NCBI GenBank assembly: GCA_021803845.1
Contig: JAJZLA010000161.1
Coordinates: 1-5,045 of the forward strand
Length of the DNA: 5,045 nt
Origin: a bacterium
GTDB lineage: Bacteria > SZUA-79 > Acidulodesulfobacterales > Acidulodesulfobacteraceae
Direction of reading: 5' to 3'
The notes under the pieces: model-generated
Databases searched by the model: none
What the model was told of the DNA's origin: nothing
What the model saw: the letters and a program-made list of their open reading frames with translations, nothing else
Program-made: the position numbers and the translations under genes
In this document: one piece after another, positions 983-4,886 of the stretch
How the letters are laid out: each line of letters starts with the position of its first letter
How positions within the stretch are numbered: the first letter of the stretch is position 1

Positions 983-1370
983 ATCTAATTCAGATATTAT
1001 GCGTATAAAACTTTTGCACGACGATATATTGGTAATGTCAGACTGCCTTCTTATCAGTCATGTTTTAAAGAACTTGATTATGCCTTAAGAAAACGAGGCT
1101 GGCTTTCGGAGTATTTTGGCAAGCCCGATACCAAGTGTTACGCCGCCGAACATTCAGTAGAACTCATTGGATTTGCGATACTGTCCAAAACGTCTGAAAC
1201 GGGAGCCGAATTTAGAATTGCCTTAAAACCGGACAAAACAGGCAGTGGATATGGTAAAATAATTACGTTAATGGTTCTTAACGATGGATTTATTAATATG
1301 AAAATTAACATGGTTCATATTAAAGTCAAGAGGAAAATCTTTGGAGAGGCTTAAATACTGCGGTTTAAGG
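972..1370 (+). pseudogene. Broken GNAT-family N-acetyltransferase, frameshifted and truncated
   Basis: Translation would begin at ATG 972, 9 nt after GGAGG (958-962), overlapping the methyltransferase stop. This frame gives MPYKSNSDIMRIKL and then runs to an early stop. Coding resumes in the -1 frame from about 1013 (FARRYIGNVRLPSY onward) and continues to TAA 1352-1354. One missing T in the T-run 1012-1015 explains the switch. The middle part carries the acetyl-CoA-binding pattern in KPDKTGSGYGK (about 1232-1264) followed by a plausible helix. Near 1326-1340 the frame changes again: SLERLKYCGL, a typical GNAT C-terminal motif, is readable at 1338-1367 in the first frame. The gene then runs into the tRNA fragment without a normal end. 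Two frameshifts and a lost C-terminus indicate a dead gene. A sequencing error could explain one shift but hardly all three defects. Confidence 0.75.
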
Positions 1371-1420
1371 TGGTGCCGAGAGGCGGAATCGAACCGTCGA
1401 CACGAGGATTTTCAGTCCTG
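1371..1420 (-). other. 3' fragment of a tRNA-Phe gene (GAA anticodon), probable attL
   Basis: On the minus strand the fragment gives an anticodon stem-loop with CTGAAAATCC (anticodon GAA), the variable region GTGTC, the T-loop TTCGATT, the 3' acceptor strand and an encoded CCA (TGG at 1371-1373). Nothing beyond about 1420 resembles a D-arm or 5' acceptor strand. The tRNA-like sequence stops within the 5' side of the anticodon stem, where position 27 would no longer pair with 43. A 3' tRNA piece of about 50 bp with this break point is the classic product of tyrosine-recombinase integration in the anticodon region. One T-stem pair is A-C, so the copy may have drifted. It cannot be a functional tRNA. 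Confidence 0.85.
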
Positions 1421-1476
1421 CGATATAGCTTGTAAGATATTGAAATAATTAATAATATAGTACGGTATATTTTTTA

Positions 1477-1496
1477 TGTAGGGGTTTTTGTAGGGG
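1477..1496. repeat. Direct repeat TGTAGGGG x2 beside the att site, possible integrase arm sites
   Basis: TGTAGGGG occurs at 1477-1484 and again at 1489-1496, a 12-bp period, separated by TTTT. It lies about 55 bp inside the element from the tRNA fragment. Short direct repeats at such a distance are where tyrosine integrases place their N-terminal arm-binding domain. The role is inferred from position; only two copies are seen. Confidence 0.4.
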
Positions 1497-1497
1497 C

Positions 1498-1737
1498 TTA
1501 CTTATCTTTATATTCCGGCGGACGAGCTCCGATTAACGCAAAAAGATAACTTCTTATTTCTTTTACGCTGTCATTGACTTCTGAAATATCTGATTTAAGG
1601 TTCGTTTCAAGATGAGATATATCGGATTTAAGTTCTTTTATTTTATCGTCCGTTCTTTTCTCCGAAGCGCGTATAAATCCCCACGTTCCTAAAAGAATTG
1701 CAAATACGCTTGCAATAGCTGTTAAAATAATCTGCAT
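1498..1737 (-). CDS. Small membrane-anchored coiled-coil protein
   Basis: The 79-aa protein has a hydrophobic N-terminal segment (about residues 2-22) ending in FIRASEKR, whose positive charges suggest that the C-terminal part stays inside the cell. A charged coiled coil follows at about 27-66. LKSDIS recurs at 36-41 and 47-52, an 11-residue spacing typical of hendecad coiled coils. The end is GARPPEYKDK. The start ATG (1735-1737) follows AGAGGA on the minus strand at a good distance. It lies just inside the att site and 26 nt beyond the left 44-bp repeat, so it may be read from the XRE side. I do not recognise a family. Small single-pass coiled-coil proteins occur in phages (holin-like or spanin-like) and conjugative elements, but nothing here decides between these. 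Confidence 0.6.
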   Translation of the reverse strand: MQIILTAIASVFAILLGTWGFIRASEKRTDDKIKELKSDISHLETNLKSDISEVNDSVKEIRSYLFALIGARPPEYKDK

Positions 1738-1763
1738 ATTGTTATCCTCTATAATTAAATTTC

Positions 1764-1796
1764 AAAAGCACCGCAGGTTATCCACGCTTGCGGGGC
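1764..1796 (-). terminator. Hairpin with short T-run downstream of the XRE gene
   Basis: Read on the minus strand, CCGCA pairs with TGCGG, strengthened by an inner GG/CC pair around an ATAA loop with a 5-nt bulge and by an outer GC/GC pair across a mismatch. Only four T follow. It could be a weak terminator or attenuator between the XRE gene and the 79-aa gene. The bulge makes it less convincing than a textbook terminator. Confidence 0.4.
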
Positions 1797-1807
1797 TATT
1801 TGGGCAA
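1764..1807 (-). repeat. Left copy of a perfect 44-bp inverted repeat
   Basis: This stretch is the exact reverse complement of 3137-3180. In the orientation of transcription leaving the XRE gene it begins TTGCCCAAATAG and ends CTGCGGTGCTTTT. It is noticeably GC-richer than the flanking intergenic DNA. It carries TTATCCACG (1778-1786, plus strand), one base from the DnaA-box consensus TTATCCACA. It begins 57 nt after the XRE stop and ends 26 nt before the start of the 79-aa gene. Confidence 0.95.
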
Positions 1808-1864
1808 AGACTTAATTCTTTAATTCTTACTTTCAATATATCACAACTTTTTAAAAAAATAAAA

Positions 1865-2248
1865 CTAAATTATATCTTTAATCTTTGCTAAAAAATCGAT
1901 AGCGGCGTTTGTGATTTTTAATACTTTTTCGTTTTCGGTTTCGTAAATTTTTTTAATTTGGAATATATTTTTTTCCAACAAGATATTTTTATCGAATTCT
2001 TTGTTTTTTACGTCAGAAGCAGGCAATAATTCAACCGGATTAATATCGTAATAATCGGCAAGTTCATATATTAAATGAATCGGAATAGGAGTCTTGCCGT
2101 CTTCGTAACGACGAAGCGACTGATAGCCAATTGAAAACGTGTTCGCAATATGCAACTGCGAAAAGCCGAGCCGTTCCCTTGTTTCTTTTAGTCGTTTTCC
2201 AATTTCAACATAAATTTCGTTATCGATTTTCTCTACTTTCTTTTTCAT
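1865..2248 (-). CDS. XRE-family (Cro/CI-like) transcriptional regulator
   Basis: The 127-aa protein has an HTH_3 domain at about residues 16-75. IGKRLKETRERLGFSQ forms helix 1 and the start of helix 2, HIANTFSIGYQSLRRYEDGK includes the recognition helix and the RYEDG signature, and HLIYELADYYDINPVELL closes the five-helix fold. The C-terminal 50 residues are charged and helical, without the protease residues of LexA/CI-type repressors, so they probably serve dimerisation or partner binding. The start at 2246-2248 follows AGGGG with 9 nt spacing and is preceded by an extended -10 promoter. It faces away from the excisionase-like operon, the usual layout of an element's lysogeny-type repressor, and probably controls both its own promoter and the divergent one. 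Confidence 0.88.
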   Translation of the reverse strand: MKKKVEKIDNEIYVEIGKRLKETRERLGFSQLHIANTFSIGYQSLRRYEDGKTPIPIHLIYELADYYDINPVELLPASDVKNKEFDKNILLEKNIFQIKKIYETENEKVLKITNAAIDFLAKIKDII

Positions 2249-2269
2249 TTAATAAATCCCCTTTTTTCG

Positions 2270-2278
2270 ATTATACCA
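2270..2278 (-). promoter_or_regulatory. Extended -10 promoter for the XRE gene
   Basis: On the minus strand this reads TGGTATAAT, a perfect -10 hexamer with the TGn extension. The -35 position 17 nt upstream (2293-2298, TTACCT) is weak, which fits an extended -10 promoter. The TTTTGCATAA operator begins just beyond the -35 position. The same 9-mer forms the -10 of the divergent promoter. Confidence 0.65.
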
Positions 2279-2299
2279 TAAATGGCAACGTTAGGTAAA

Positions 2300-2319
2300 T
2301 TTTGCATAATTTTGCATAA
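2300..2319. promoter_or_regulatory. Tandem 10-bp repeat, candidate XRE operator
   Basis: TTTTGCATAA occurs twice without a gap (2300-2309, 2310-2319). The 10-bp period puts both copies on the same DNA face. It lies just upstream of the -35 position of the XRE promoter, as expected for autoregulation. A related, weaker TCTGCAATTC follows at 2331-2340. The assignment to the XRE protein is inferred from position. Confidence 0.5.
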
Positions 2320-2361
2320 ATTTTCCAAAATCTGCAATTCAAATATACCGTTTATATATAT

Positions 2362-2375
2362 AATATTATAATATT
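2362..2375. other. AT-rich tract with a perfect palindrome, middle of the divergent region
   Basis: AATATTATAATATT is its own reverse complement and sits in a nearly pure A/T stretch (about 2351-2385) between the two promoters. It could be an easily melted segment, or simply AT-rich spacer. No gene is seen between 2249 and 2537. Confidence 0.3.
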
Positions 2376-2399
2376 TATAACACTATATCAAGAGCCTAT

Positions 2400-2460
2400 T
2401 ATGACTGTAAATCATAGCTTTATGACTATAAGTAATAAAAAAGTATGACTAAAATAAAGA
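2400..2460 (+). repeat. Iteron-like direct repeats TATGACT upstream of the operon promoter
   Basis: TATGACTGTAA (2400), TATGACTATAA (2421) and TATGACTAAAA (2444) are spaced 21 and 23 bp apart, about two helical turns. A fourth partial match, TTGACTA, forms the -35 box at 2462. The first unit is also a dyad, TATGA and TCATA (2412-2416) around a 7-nt centre. The second is a degraded version (TAATA). Such an array could bind an activator or repressor of the operon or a replication initiator. No Rep protein is seen in the window. Confidence 0.55.
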
Positions 2461-2461
2461 C

Positions 2462-2489
2462 TTGACTATTTATTCAAAAATGGTATAAT
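2462..2489 (+). promoter_or_regulatory. Strong sigma70 promoter of the HTH/TraD-like operon
   Basis: TTGACT (2462-2467), a 16-nt spacer and TATAAT (2484-2489) preceded by TGG form a near-consensus extended -10 promoter. Transcription would start near 2496 and give a leader of about 40 nt ending in AAGGAGG (2521-2527). The TATGACT repeats run into its -35, so the promoter is likely regulated. Confidence 0.75.
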
Positions 2490-2537
2490 TAAATATAATA
2501 AATTTTAAAATATTATATTAAAGGAGGAAAAGACAAA

Positions 2538-2732
2538 ATGACAAAAACTAAAAAACAAATGTTGCAAATGGGTGAAGTCTTAAATTTTCTGGGAGTTACT
2601 AAGATGACGTTACGTAAAATGATGAGAGAGGGCGAAATCGACTATTTTCGCGTCGGAAAACAATATCGTTTTTCGATTAATGATATTGAAAATTACTTAA
2701 TCAAAAACAAAAATAAACCTGTTACGAGGTGA
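2538..2732 (+). CDS. Excisionase-like winged HTH DNA-binding protein (MerR-type HTH_17)
   Basis: The 64-aa protein is almost entirely one HTH_17 domain. MGEVLNFLGVTKMTLRKMM (about 11-29) contains the helix-turn-helix, and REGEIDYFRVGKQYRFSIND (30-49) is the wing with the characteristic 'G..V....R'. The family includes recombination directionality factors (Xis) that bend att DNA during excision, and small regulators of mobile-element genes. The start is set by AAGGAGG 2521-2527. Its stop is embedded in GAGGTGA, the ribosome binding site of the next gene 3 nt later, so translation is probably coupled. With an att site at the left, an excisionase role is attractive but unproven. It could instead regulate the transfer genes. 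Confidence 0.82.
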   Translation: MTKTKKQMLQMGEVLNFLGVTKMTLRKMMREGEIDYFRVGKQYRFSINDIENYLIKNKNKPVTR

Positions 2733-2735
2733 ATT

Positions 2736-3131
2736 ATGTTCGAGGAACTTAAAAATTCAATCAAAGAAGTTTCGCAAAAAATTAAAAATATAGATAAAAA
2801 AACTGCTGTAGATGAATATTTATCTTTGGTTAAACAAAAAGCAGAATTAGAAAAAAAATTAACGGATAAAAAAATTAAATTAATCGAAATGCAAAAAAAT
2901 AAAAAGGACAGAAGCCGCAGGGAACACGTTAAATTTTTAGCAGGTGGGATTATCGCAAAATATTATCCGAACATTTTTGAACTAAAAACAGATGAAGATA
3001 TAGAAAACGCAGTAAAAAAAGTTTTAAGAATCGAAAATCAAAATCAAGATTATTTTGAAATAAATGCCGACAAATTCGAAATAATCGAAAAAGACGGCGA
3101 GGAATACTATAAAGTAAAAAAACAAATTTAA
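2736..3131 (+). CDS. Coiled-coil protein, possible TraD/MobC-like relaxosome accessory factor
   Basis: This is a 131-aa lysine-rich protein with no signal peptide or membrane segment. Residues 1-55 are a predicted coiled coil. RSRREHVKFLAGGIIAKYY (59-77) resembles the 'RR....GG.' core of the TraD/MobC accessory proteins found beside MOBQ relaxases, which help the relaxase at oriT. The C-terminal part (83-131) is acidic and probably folds separately, with FEINADKFEIIEKDGEEYYKV reading like strands. It follows the HTH gene by 3 nt, using GAGGTGA 2726-2732, and ends 5 nt before the right 44-bp repeat, which separates it from the relaxase. The TraD-like call is based on this motif and the neighbours only. 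An unknown element-specific protein is the alternative. Confidence 0.5.
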   Translation: MFEELKNSIKEVSQKIKNIDKKTAVDEYLSLVKQKAELEKKLTDKKIKLIEMQKNKKDRSRREHVKFLAGGIIAKYYPNIFELKTDEDIENAVKKVLRIENQNQDYFEINADKFEIIEKDGEEYYKVKKQI

Positions 3132-3136
3132 TGTAG

Positions 3137-3180
3137 TTGCCCAAATAGCCCCGCAAGCGTGGATAACCTGCGGTGCTTTT
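3137..3180 (+). repeat. Right copy of the perfect 44-bp inverted repeat
   Basis: This is the exact reverse complement of 1764-1807. It starts 5 nt after the stop of the TraD-like gene and ends 25 nt before the relaxase ATG. The DnaA-box-like 9-mer lies on the minus strand at 3158-3166. Downstream similarity to the left copy fades through a shared TTTAAT and a nearby TAT toward the two start codons. Confidence 0.95.
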
Positions 3181-3183
3181 TTT
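3148..3183 (+). terminator. Bulged hairpin plus T7 at the end of the HTH/TraD-like operon
   Basis: CCGCA (3151-3155) pairs with TGCGG (3169-3173). Inner GG (3161-3162) and CC (3167-3168) close an ATAA loop, leaving a 5-nt bulge, and an outer GC/GC pair lies across a mismatch. Seven T (3177-3183) follow. It looks like an intrinsic terminator or attenuator before the relaxase. Because it lies wholly within the 44-bp repeat, it may also be a protein-binding hairpin such as an oriT structure. Confidence 0.5.
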
Positions 3184-3205
3184 AATCTATCTGGTTGGAG
3201 AAAAA

Positions 3206-4588
3206 ATGAAGATAGAACCCAGACACGATTTTAGCAATCACGACTGGAAGGAAAAATATTCAAGAGCTCCGAAAAAAAAAGAAAATGAATTAAGAATTTC
3301 TTCTGGAGTTGCACGAGGTAATTTTTCGGCGCATAAAGGCGGTTTTTCGGGGAATAAGACATGGTCGGTGATGGCGAGGGCGACGGTTTTTTCAGGCGTA
3401 AAAAATAGGGGCAGAGCGGCGGCGTTCGCTGAATATATAGAGAGAAAAGAAGAATGTATTTGCGCCGTCGGCGATCCTGAAGCCAAGAAAAAATTTGCAG
3501 AAATCGAAAAAAAATTACTATCGGAAAACCCGAATCGAGTTACACAAAGACAACTAACCATTCCCGTTCCGGTGGAATTTTTAAATAATGCAGATAAAAA
3601 TATGCAAAAGTTTGCTGAGCAGTTCGGCAAAAAATACTTCGACATCTGCGCAACATGGAATATGGCTTTACATCAGGGCGGAAAAGATATGAAGAACCCC
3701 CATATCCATATCATATTTAGCCCAGTTGACGCGGCGGGAAAAAATATAAGAGACTTATCGAAAAGCAATTATATGTTTTTGGACGCATTGAAGAAAGACG
3801 TTGGCCAGTTTTTACATAATGAACTTAGCGTGGAAATAAGAACTATCGATAAAAAACAAGCAAGGAAAAGGTATCCGCGGTGGGTGGTGGAGGCAGCGAA
3901 AAGAGCAGAAAAAGCGGAATTAGCGGGCGATAAAGGAGCTTTAAAGCAAGAATATATCAAGCGTTATCCGATTTTTGAAGAATTTATAAAAGAAAAAGAG
4001 AGGAAAAAGAAACTTCAAGAATTTAATGAATTAAAAAGCGAGGAAAAAAAATTCAACGAAAAGTTTAAAGACTTCGCAGAAAAAACTAAAAAAGTTTTCG
4101 ATAAAATAACGGGCAGCGAAGAAGCGAAAATTAAGGAAAAGGTTAAAGAAATTCAGGAGGGCAAGGATATGTGCTGGGAAAAAAAACAGAAAAACCAAGA
4201 ACCTACTAAAGAACCTGCTAAAGAAAAACCGGAACCGGAAAGCCAAAAACCACAATACAAAACCCAGAGGAAAAAAGAAATTGAATCCGAAATTAAAAAA
4301 ATAGATAAAATCAATGAAAAATTGAATAAAAAAATTAATTCACGCTGGTTCTCGGTTAAAGAAAAAGAACAATTAATCAGCGACAGGGAATATAACAATA
4401 TGCTTAAAATGGGGTTAGAATCAGAACTTCGTTCTATAGAAAAACCGTCAGTACCAAAACCGAAAATAGAAATACCAAAACCCGACGAAAATAAAAAATA
4501 TAGCGATGAATTACAAAAAATGCAACAGCATCAAGTATCTCAAGAATTTATTAAAAAAAATAATAACGAAAATAAATTAAAAAGGTGA
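3206..4588 (+). CDS. Divergent MobA/MobL-like (MOBQ-type) relaxase
   Basis: A relaxase of this type nicks one DNA strand at oriT through a tyrosine and pilots it into a recipient cell. In this 460-aa protein, GRAAAFAEYIER (69-80) matches motif I of MobA/MobL proteins, with Y77 as the likely nucleophile. NMALHQGGKDMKNPHIHIIF (152-171) matches the metal-binding motif, with H156, H166 and H168 as the three histidines. About 50 residues precede the catalytic core, more than usual. From about 215 on the protein is charged and helical, with an EP/KP-rich linker (331-351) and a second coiled coil. ATG 3206 is chosen because GGAG (3197-3200) lies 5 nt upstream. A GTG at 3173 lies inside the repeat and has no ribosome binding site. 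Its stop is embedded in the ribosome binding site of the next gene. Confidence 0.75.
   Translation: MKIEPRHDFSNHDWKEKYSRAPKKKENELRISSGVARGNFSAHKGGFSGNKTWSVMARATVFSGVKNRGRAAAFAEYIERKEECICAVGDPEAKKKFAEIEKKLLSENPNRVTQRQLTIPVPVEFLNNADKNMQKFAEQFGKKYFDICATWNMALHQGGKDMKNPHIHIIFSPVDAAGKNIRDLSKSNYMFLDALKKDVGQFLHNELSVEIRTIDKKQARKRYPRWVVEAAKRAEKAELAGDKGALKQEYIKRYPIFEEFIKEKERKKKLQEFNELKSEEKKFNEKFKDFAEKTKKVFDKITGSEEAKIKEKVKEIQEGKDMCWEKKQKNQEPTKEPAKEKPEPESQKPQYKTQRKKEIESEIKKIDKINEKLNKKINSRWFSVKEKEQLISDREYNNMLKMGLESELRSIEKPSVPKPKIEIPKPDENKKYSDELQKMQQHQVSQEFIKKNNNENKLKR
4155..4171 (+). promoter_or_regulatory. Internal ribosome binding site and in-frame ATG in the relaxase gene
   Basis: AGGAGG (4155-4160) lies 8 nt before ATG 4169, which is codon 322 in frame. 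Initiation here would give a separate 139-aa protein starting MCWEKKQKNQEP, made of the EP/KP linker and the C-terminal coiled coil. Its SD is stronger than that of the annotated relaxase start. It may be chance in AG-rich coding DNA. Confidence 0.4.
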
Positions 4589-4593
4589 TTATT

Positions 4594-4758
4594 ATGAAAT
4601 TTTTTAAGAAAATGAGTAATAGCAAGGCTTTGAGACCTCGTAGCCGTTACGAGGTGATTTTTTTAGCGGTATTTTTATTTTTTGCTTTTACTCCCTTAAC
4701 GGCTTCGGCGCAGGGAATTATCACTTTCGACCCTGTTACGGGAAATATCCGGGCGTGA
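4594..4758 (+). CDS. 54-aa exported protein, possibly a truncated VirB5/TrbJ-like subunit
   Basis: The reading frame has a basic N-terminus (about residues 1-18), a hydrophobic core VIFLAVFLFFAF (21-32) and TASA before Q40, a clear signal peptidase I site. The mature part would be only QGIITFDPVTGNIRA, 15 residues. The pattern AQG.. .FDP at the mature N-terminus resembles VirB5/TrbJ minor pilus proteins of type IV secretion systems, which are normally some 200 residues or more. I therefore infer a truncated gene, although a genuine short secreted peptide is possible. AAGGTGA (4582-4588), overlapping the relaxase stop, gives a good ribosome binding site 5 nt before ATG. A hairpin with a T-run lies within its early codons. 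The stop is followed at once by the G/T-rich repeat tract. Confidence 0.5.
   Translation: MKFFKKMSNSKALRPRSRYEVIFLAVFLFFAFTPLTASAQGIITFDPVTGNIRA
4635..4664 (+). terminator. Intrinsic terminator-like hairpin inside the 54-aa gene
   Basis: ACCTCGTA (4635-4642) and TACGAGGT (4648-4655) form a perfect 8-bp stem with a 5-nt GCCGT loop. Seven T follow at 4658-4664 after two bases. The structure is as good as many intrinsic terminators. It may end the relaxase transcript or attenuate the downstream gene. It also encodes residues 14-23, so coding constraint may partly shape it. Confidence 0.55.
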
Positions 4759-4764
4759 AGTTTT

Positions 4765-4886
4765 AGGGTTCTTGGTTTTCGGTCTTTGGGTTTCCGGTTG
4801 GAAAAAAAAGGTCTTTGGTTTCCGGCAGTCGGGTTTAAATGGTTTTTTAGTCGTCGGGTTTTGGCAGTTGGTAGTCGGGTTTATGG
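4765..4886 (+). repeat. Degenerate G/T-rich short repeats
   Basis: Two near-identical units, GGTCTTTGGGTTTCCGG (4781-4797) and GGTCTTTGGTTTCCGG (4810-4825), are followed by three variants of AGTCGGGTTT..TGG (4827-4842, 4849-4864, 4873-4886). GGCAGTYGG recurs at 4824 and 4863. The plus strand is strongly G/T-biased, unlike everything around it, and holds many GG/GGG runs. No open frame of note crosses it. It looks like slippage-grown, decayed repeat DNA. Confidence 0.6.

What the first reader, a model, noticed from the sequence alone, without database searches (positions are those of the whole stretch)
1764..3180. Perfect 44-bp inverted repeat enclosing the repressor/HTH/TraD-like cassette
Positions 1764-1807 and 3137-3180 are exact reverse complements, 1.33 kb apart, in otherwise non-repetitive DNA. 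The enclosed segment is a complete regulatory unit with a repressor, a divergent promoter region and a two-gene operon. Exact identity implies recent duplication, gene conversion or strong constraint. Flipping the segment would point the strong operon promoter toward the 79-aa gene and the XRE promoter toward the relaxase, so it could act as a phase switch. It could also be a pair of transfer, replication or recombination sites.
Basis: partly seen in the sequence, partly recalled or inferred. Interest (0 to 1): 0.72.

Follow-up and report, generated by a model that had tools for sequence, protein, structure and literature searches.

The report
Inverted pair of DNA-transfer start sites
Two identical, opposite-facing copies of what looks like the site where a transfer enzyme nicks DNA flank the control genes of a small mobile element, and the pair recurs in related elements, so it is more likely a doubled transfer origin than a genetic on/off switch.

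Summary
The 44-bp perfect inverted repeat is real. Relatives show that it is a structured site: a 5' box (mostly TTGCYCAA), one or two hairpins, then a nearly invariant core, (T)AACCTGCGGTGCT. The 14-base core occurs 21 times in 10 of 30 genomes searched in one phylum; its reversed control never. Of 12 relaxase loci (11 plus the window), 8 carry two intact sites; all 8 pairs are inverted, 0.6-1.9 kb apart. Hairpin letters vary but pairing persists, and the two copies of one element resemble each other (4 of 40,320 re-pairings reach the observed value). In the window one copy lies 41 bp before a relaxase gene (MobA-like predicted fold), and the core fits 7 of 8 positions of the published MOBP nick consensus. 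[quoted passage not shown] the window's site 2 is probably a recent copy of site 1. The phase-switch idea found no support: cassette orientation is the same in the 7 comparable loci. Opposite-strand oriT pairs are known in staphylococcal plasmids (PMC4652767, passages), so this is a new variant. Nicking and transfer were not tested; the window's own hairpin is weak.

The parts
1764..1807 (-). Site 1: oriT-like site on the minus strand (5' box, hairpin, core), pointing left; predicted nick between 1774 and 1773 (minus strand) if read as MOBP-type AACCTG^C
   Evidence: exact inverted copy of site 2; site 1 and its flank identical in L002; nick position inferred from consensus only
3137..3180 (+). 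Site 2: oriT-like site on the plus strand, pointing right into the relaxase gene; predicted nick between 3170 and 3171 (plus strand)
   Evidence: core starts 41 bp before the relaxase ATG (3206)
3206..4588 (+). HUH relaxase, 460 aa; invariant Y77 and H156, H166, H168 in the family
2736..3131 (+). 131-aa protein; small ORFs alike precede the relaxase gene in relatives; presumed relaxosome accessory protein
   Evidence: tblastn in L001-L007; no Pfam family at E 0.01; ORFs in group 2 loci
2538..2732 (+). HTH_17 protein, 64 aa, excisionase/regulator type
   Evidence: PF12728 E 7.9e-10; PHROG excisionase-type matches
1865..2248 (-). XRE-family repressor-like protein, 127 aa
   Evidence: PF12844, PF01381; PHROG repressor matches
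2292..2324 (.). Putative operator (TTTTGCAT repeats) between XRE and HTH_17; same stretch in front of the integrase in three relatives
   Evidence: blastn to L001 10502-10533, L002 18460-18491, L006 11927-11958
1498..1737 (-). 79-aa membrane/coiled-coil ORF downstream of site 1
   Evidence: 100% in L002, 81% in L006
1364..1419 (-). 3' part of a tRNA-Phe gene = element end (attachment site)
   Evidence: 98% identical to the intact tRNA-Phe of L001, L002 and L007 and present at both ends of those elements; no whole tRNA in the window

Best explanation
The repeat is a pair of origins of transfer (oriT) on opposite strands of an integrative mobilizable element whose left end is the tRNA-Phe fragment at 1364-1419. 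Each site has a 5' box, a hairpin and a nick core; the element's own relaxase, probably helped by the 131-aa protein, would bind the hairpin side and cut in the core (AACCTG^CGG or two bases further). Site 2 lies in the relaxase leader and site 1 before the leftward 79-aa gene, so each points away from the control cassette: whichever is used, the cassette (XRE, HTH_17, 131-aa gene) would enter the recipient last. Inverted order would persist because same-strand oriT pairs are deleted by relaxase recombination; near-identity within an element would come from gene conversion or re-copying, and the window's site 2 looks like a recent copy of site 1. Shown: the sites, their conservation, pairing, orientation and link to the relaxase. 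Inferred: nicking, transfer from both, order of entry, conversion.
For: Core found 21 times in 10 of 30 genomes, reversed control 0. Relaxase domain in 8 of 30 genomes; 7 of these 8 have an exact core and the eighth (G001) one with a mismatch, against 3 of the 22 without relaxase (G008, G010, G024). 8 of 12 relaxase loci have two intact sites, 8 of 8 inverted. In all 7 loci of the window's layout the site stands 32-109 bp before the relaxase start. 13 different 5' hairpin arms over 25 sites; 21 of 25 beat shuffles at P<0.1. Core TAACCTGC fits 7 of 8 of (C/T)ATCCTG(C/T), the MOBP nick consensus, with an inverted repeat next to it in RP4 (PMC3772185, passages). oriTs usually lie upstream of the relaxase gene with a hairpin 5' of a conserved core (PMC4652767, passages). 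Predicted relaxase fold. In the minimal complete element L004 (6.7 kb, 6 genes, two sites) the genes it shares with the other complete elements come down to relaxase, 131-aa-like gene, repressor, HTH_17 and integrase. Window, L002 and the L001 remnant share the site-1 hairpin, while site 2 differs in L001 and L002.
Against: No nick or transfer data. The window's own hairpin (5 pairs, 1 mismatch) is no better than shuffles (P 0.46-0.51); folded alone the 50-nt site has z about -1.1 and a different best fold that includes the core. In group 2 (L035, L052, L056, L057) the relaxase start is 4.1-4.4 kb from the nearest site, and in L007 0.8 kb. 4 of 12 relaxase loci show one intact site (L001 with a remnant, L007, and L056/L057 whose contigs end about 1 kb further), so two are not obligatory. 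In group 2 the pair points inward around the repressor, so 'cassette enters last' does not hold there. Every site-1-type copy also sits just before a gene, so a regulatory role is not excluded.
Confidence: 0.7

Rival explanations
1. Replication priming or initiation pair: like ssiA/ssiB of IncQ plasmids, the two inverted hairpin sites let the relaxase (in relatives fused to Toprim) or a linked primase start both strands of a strand-displacement replication.
For: 5 of 16 homologues carry Toprim, L003 too; DnaB-like helicase in L002 and L035, replicase/primase in L001, Rep3 initiator between the two sites in L003 and L005, DUF3987 in L004. IncQ replication starts at two sites ssiA and ssiB served by RepB (PMC6925257, PMC4538821, passages).
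Against: The same core serves relaxases with and without Toprim, so Toprim cannot be what reads it; position in the relaxase leader and nick-like core fit oriT better. The inverted order of ssiA/ssiB is recalled, not from a call.
Confidence: 0.12
2. Regulatory DNA or RNA element: a protein (relaxase, 131-aa protein or repressor) binds each copy and controls the gene after it (relaxase at site 2; 79-aa gene or repressor at site 1).
For: Site 1-type copies stand 42-110 bp before a repressor or 79-aa-like gene and site 2 before the relaxase in the window's layout.
Against: In L035 and L052 the second copy follows the repressor and points at its 3' end, with no gene in that direction before the repressor end. 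Autoregulation from an oriT would be compatible with the best explanation.
Confidence: 0.1
3. Invertible phase switch: recombination between the repeats flips the cassette.
For: Perfect inverted repeat around a divergent regulatory unit.
Against: Same orientation in 7 of 7 comparable loci; no invertase seen; cassette contents differ between elements (Rep3 in L003/L005, only a 131-aa-like gene in L004).
Confidence: 0.04
4. Pair of intrinsic terminators ending converging transcripts.
For: Both window copies score as terminator-like with T tails.
Against: 4 found against 3.0 expected in shuffles; no T tail after the core in L004, L035 or L006 site 2; copies precede genes as often as they follow them.
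Confidence: 0.04

Closest known systems
Two-oriT staphylococcal plasmids of the pWBG749 oriT family (PMC4652767, passages read)
   Same: Two oriTs with a hairpin 5' of a conserved core, invariably on opposite strands in the 42 plasmids with two copies; same-strand pairs thought to be deleted by relaxase recombination.
   Different: There most multi-oriT plasmids (58 of 67) carry oriTs of different subfamilies and rely on a relaxase in trans; here copies are alike, 0.6-1.9 kb apart, and the element encodes its relaxase.
ICEclc with two oriTs (PMC5714925 and PMC3395598, passages; original paper not seen)
   Same: Integrated element with two functional oriTs served by one relaxase.
   Different: MOBH relaxase; spacing and orientation of its oriTs not seen by me.
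IncQ (RSF1010/R1162) mobilization and ssi system
   Same: Closest solved relaxase fold is R1162 MobA; oriT is a hairpin followed by a short core; IncQ also links relaxase and primase and uses paired initiation sites.
   Different: Core letters differ (IncQ 37-mer checked); IncQ has one oriT separate from ssiA/ssiB (partly recalled).
RP4 / H. pylori tfs4 oriT, MOBP type (PMC3772185, passages)
   Same: Inverted repeat next to a nick core upstream of the relaxase; TAACCTGC fits 7 of 8 of the consensus.
   Different: Third base differs (A for T); one oriT, not an inverted pair, as far as the passages show.

Membership tests
Origin of transfer (oriT) | Lies beside the cognate relaxase gene | tested here: met
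   One copy 32-109 bp before the relaxase start in 7 of 7 loci of the window's layout; not adjacent in 5 others (L007, L035, L052, L056, L057)
Origin of transfer (oriT) | Hairpin 5' of a conserved core | tested here: met
   21 of 25 sites beat shuffles, 13 different arms; the 4 misses are the window's hairpin type
Origin of transfer (oriT) | Core fits a known nick consensus | tested here: inconclusive
   7 of 8 positions of (C/T)ATCCTG(C/T); one core base differs
Origin of transfer (oriT) | Nicked by the relaxase and mobilizes DNA in cis | not testable with these tools
   needs biochemistry and mating
HUH relaxase | HUH fold with catalytic Tyr and three His | tested here: met
HUH relaxase | Pfam PF03432 above curated cut-off | tested here: not met
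   18.4 bits against 24.6; a divergent member at most
Integrative mobilizable element | Integrase, attachment repeats at a tRNA, relaxase | tested here: met
   L001, L002, L004, L007 have flanking direct repeats at tRNA-Phe or tRNA-Arg; integrase found by Pfam in L001, L002, L004. In the window itself only the left end and relaxase are visible
Integrative mobilizable element | No complete T4SS of its own | tested here: inconclusive
   Only TrbC- and TrbL-like proteins among the ORFs scanned in L001 and L002; not all ORFs were scanned
Invertible DNA switch | Both orientations occur | tested here: not met
   one orientation in 7 of 7 comparable loci; reads not available
Intrinsic terminator | Hairpin followed by a T tract, conserved | tested here: not met
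   T tail missing in L004, L035 and others
IncQ-type ssi pair | Recognised by the element's primase to start replication | not testable with these tools
   gene content is suggestive only

The most novel reading that the evidence does not exclude
The inverted pair is a dual-purpose transfer and replication origin: the relaxase (in some relatives fused to Toprim) cuts opposite strands at the two sites and, with the element's helicase, drives outward strand displacement in both directions, so that either strand can be transferred or copied, and the complementary site on the transferred strand helps to prime the second strand. Concerted evolution of the two hairpins would follow because both must answer to the same relaxosome.
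Probability: 0.18. Interest if true: 0.7.

Novelty: new variant of a known kind. Interest (0 to 1): 0.47.

Why it matters
Doubled oriTs are usually treated as accidents or as a way to use several helpers. Here a family of elements from one little-studied phylum keeps two matching, opposite-strand sites close together around its control or replication genes, with hairpins that change between elements yet agree within them. That makes two questions directly testable: what a second, opposite oriT does for an element with its own relaxase, and how two inverted sites stay alike. It also gives a signature (5' box, hairpin, AACCTGCGGTGC) for finding relaxase-less passengers.

Tried and rejected
Searches without relatives: exact 23-mer in viral contigs, 0; relaxase by tblastn in plasmids and phages, none; relaxase alignment in viral contigs, 42 stretches matched a pattern, none a relative; relaxase profile against PDB sequences, one meaningless match. 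A gapped site pattern gave 4 IMG/VR contigs (L059-L062), rejected: no hit of 10 element proteins by tblastn. Distant blastn of 1300-4800 against plasmids found only the tRNA stretch (20 of 40 records shown). Rfam: four matches, all below the families' gathering scores.

Rejected readings: terminators, phase switch, REP/BIME repeats (many copies per genome expected by the abstract of PMC2817692 in the listing; here I saw 0-4 exact cores per genome). Snap-back priming by the pair was considered; group 2 orientation does not favour it.

Rows dropped before counts: of the core matches listed, L037, L038, L039, L025 and L055 were left out of the 25-site set because they lack the 5' box (L055 is an exact 14-mer, G010). 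Of 12 relaxase matches one (G006:C20) covers only a C-terminal part and was not counted as a relaxase locus. With one mismatch allowed the reversed control had 1 match against 19. The permutation test ignores kinship; the window and L002 share an identical site 1.

Full report
Observation. The two 44-mers are exact reverse complements and identity ends abruptly at both borders. By base composition about 2e-18 such pairs are expected in the window. The surrounding genes are as implied: XRE, HTH_17, a 131-aa ORF, and a relaxase whose Pfam match is below cut-off.

The element. Window 1364-1419 is 98% identical to the end of tRNA-Phe genes in L001, L002 and L007, and those three loci hold whole elements between two copies of that stretch. 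A 6.7-kb element in L004 sits in the same way in a tRNA-Arg gene with a 29-bp repeat. The window shows the left end of such an element and most likely runs out of it before the right end. Integrases were found by Pfam in L001, L002 and L004. L001 and L002 carry TrbC- and TrbL-like proteins but, among the ORFs scanned, no other transfer-pore proteins.

The site. Homologues of the relaxase (16) led to seven genome contigs. Five of the seven (L002-L006) hold an intact inverted pair of the same kind, with other letters. Aligned by eye, 25 sites share a 5' box (mostly TTGCYCAA), one or two hairpins, and AACCTGCGGTGC; the core carries one mismatch only in L007. Examples: the copies in L004 form a 51-nt exact inverted repeat and those in L005 a 48-nt one; L006 has 62 nt at 90%. 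The hairpin just before the core has 13 different 5' arms over 25 sites and is always complemented, with one mismatch in the CCCCGC type; 21 of 25 beat mononucleotide shuffles at P<0.1, and the mean folding z of the upstream 50 nt is -2.6. The window's own hairpin type is the weak one: P 0.46-0.51, z +0.91 for site 2 and -2.05 for site 1, and about 30 of 200 shuffles fold as well as the 50-nt site. So the hairpin is argued from the family, not from the window.

Frequency and control. TAACCTGCGGTGCT was sought in the 30 genomes that the tool returned for the phylum of G002: 21 exact matches in 10 genomes, 0 of the reversed control. The relaxase profile matched 8 of the 30. Seven of these 8 have an exact core, the eighth one mismatch; of the other 22, three have a core (G008 two, G010 one without 5' box, G024 one).

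Pairing. Of 12 relaxase loci (11, window added), 8 have two intact sites: window, L002, L003, L004, L005, L006, L035, L052. All 8 pairs are inverted, 620-1916 bp apart. L001 has one intact site and a remnant without the core, L007 one site, L056 and L057 one site each on contigs that end about 1 kb further. In the window's layout the copies point outward; in L035 and L052 they point inward around a repressor gene. The two copies of one element are alike: mean identity of the variable part 0.88 within against 0.49 between elements; 4 of 40,320 re-pairings do as well. Three pairs (L002 0.59, L003 0.67, L005 0.83) differ in hairpin letters yet keep a hairpin, so identity is not required, pairing is. 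In L002 site 1 equals the window's copies, while site 2 differs; L001's site-1 remnant has the window's hairpin and its site 2 another. Hence the window's site 2 was probably overwritten by site 1.

Why oriT. Passages of PMC3772185 give the MOBP nick consensus (C/T)ATCCTG(C/T) next to an inverted repeat; TAACCTGC fits 7 of 8. Passages of PMC4652767 say that oriTs commonly lie upstream of the relaxase gene with a hairpin 5' of a conserved core. Both hold in the window's layout. The closest fold is MOBQ-type R1162 MobA; its oriT 37-mer was found in 124 plasmid records, in the one opened as MOBQ IncQ1 near mobC; the position of its nick is recalled. Reading our core as IncQ-like would put the nick two bases further.

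Why inverted. PMC4652767 (passages) reports that the 42 staphylococcal plasmids with two oriTs invariably carry them on opposite strands and suspects that same-strand pairs are deleted by relaxase recombination. The same filter would explain 8 of 8 here. Two oriTs are also reported for ICEclc (PMC5714925, PMC3395598, passages), and PMC5587640 (passages) names ICEclc, pAD1 and R6K as dual-oriT systems. In searches I saw no description of a homogenised inverted oriT pair inside an integrative element; the library lacks most subscription papers.

Switch. Win, L002 and L006 are colinear across the pair, and in 7 of 7 loci of this layout the 131-aa-like gene keeps its direction. Nothing indicates flipping.

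Open. Whether both copies are used, whether the pair also serves replication (Toprim fusions in 5 of 16 homologues, Rep3 initiators between the sites in L003 and L005, helicases), and how copies are kept alike.

Noticed in passing
L001 202-795(-), L035 10767-11372(+), L052 10585-11061(+), L053 8749-9504(-), L054 10390-11232(+); relaxases in L007, L052, L056, L057: Cargo proteins of NTase/AbiEii/HEPN type end in the same tail as relaxases (about DAFTxDLxxRLNKxKGxGR); a regular expression picked 9 such proteins plus 2 apparent chance hits among 1078 open frames. Possibly a shared type IV secretion signal carrying toxin-antitoxin-like proteins with the DNA.
   Followed up: partly
window 4585-4758 and 4736-4762: Relative to L002 about 2.36 kb are missing here (L002 11540-13900): the TrbC-like protein is cut to 57 aa and the TrbL-like gene is absent.
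   Followed up: partly
window 2292-2324; L001 10502-10533; L002 18460-18491; L006 11927-11958: The stretch between XRE and HTH_17 recurs in front of the integrase gene, so the repressor may control excision too.
   Followed up: partly
P0009, P0010, P0012, P0014, P0016; L003 3570-5546: Relaxases fused to a Toprim domain.
   Followed up: partly
L058 (G024:C23): A 5.3-kb contig with integrase pieces at both ends, one site and an L003-like repressor but no relaxase found; perhaps a passenger mobilized in trans.
   Followed up: no
L006 3539-3830: Remnant of a second element: broken XRE gene plus a site whose core ends in A, beside a tRNA-Pro repeat.
   Followed up: no
window 1970-1992; L007 9949-9971; L003 4903-4923: TTTTTTCCAACA stretch inside the XRE gene matches relaxase-leader or coding DNA of relatives in reverse orientation; unexplained.
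   Followed up: no
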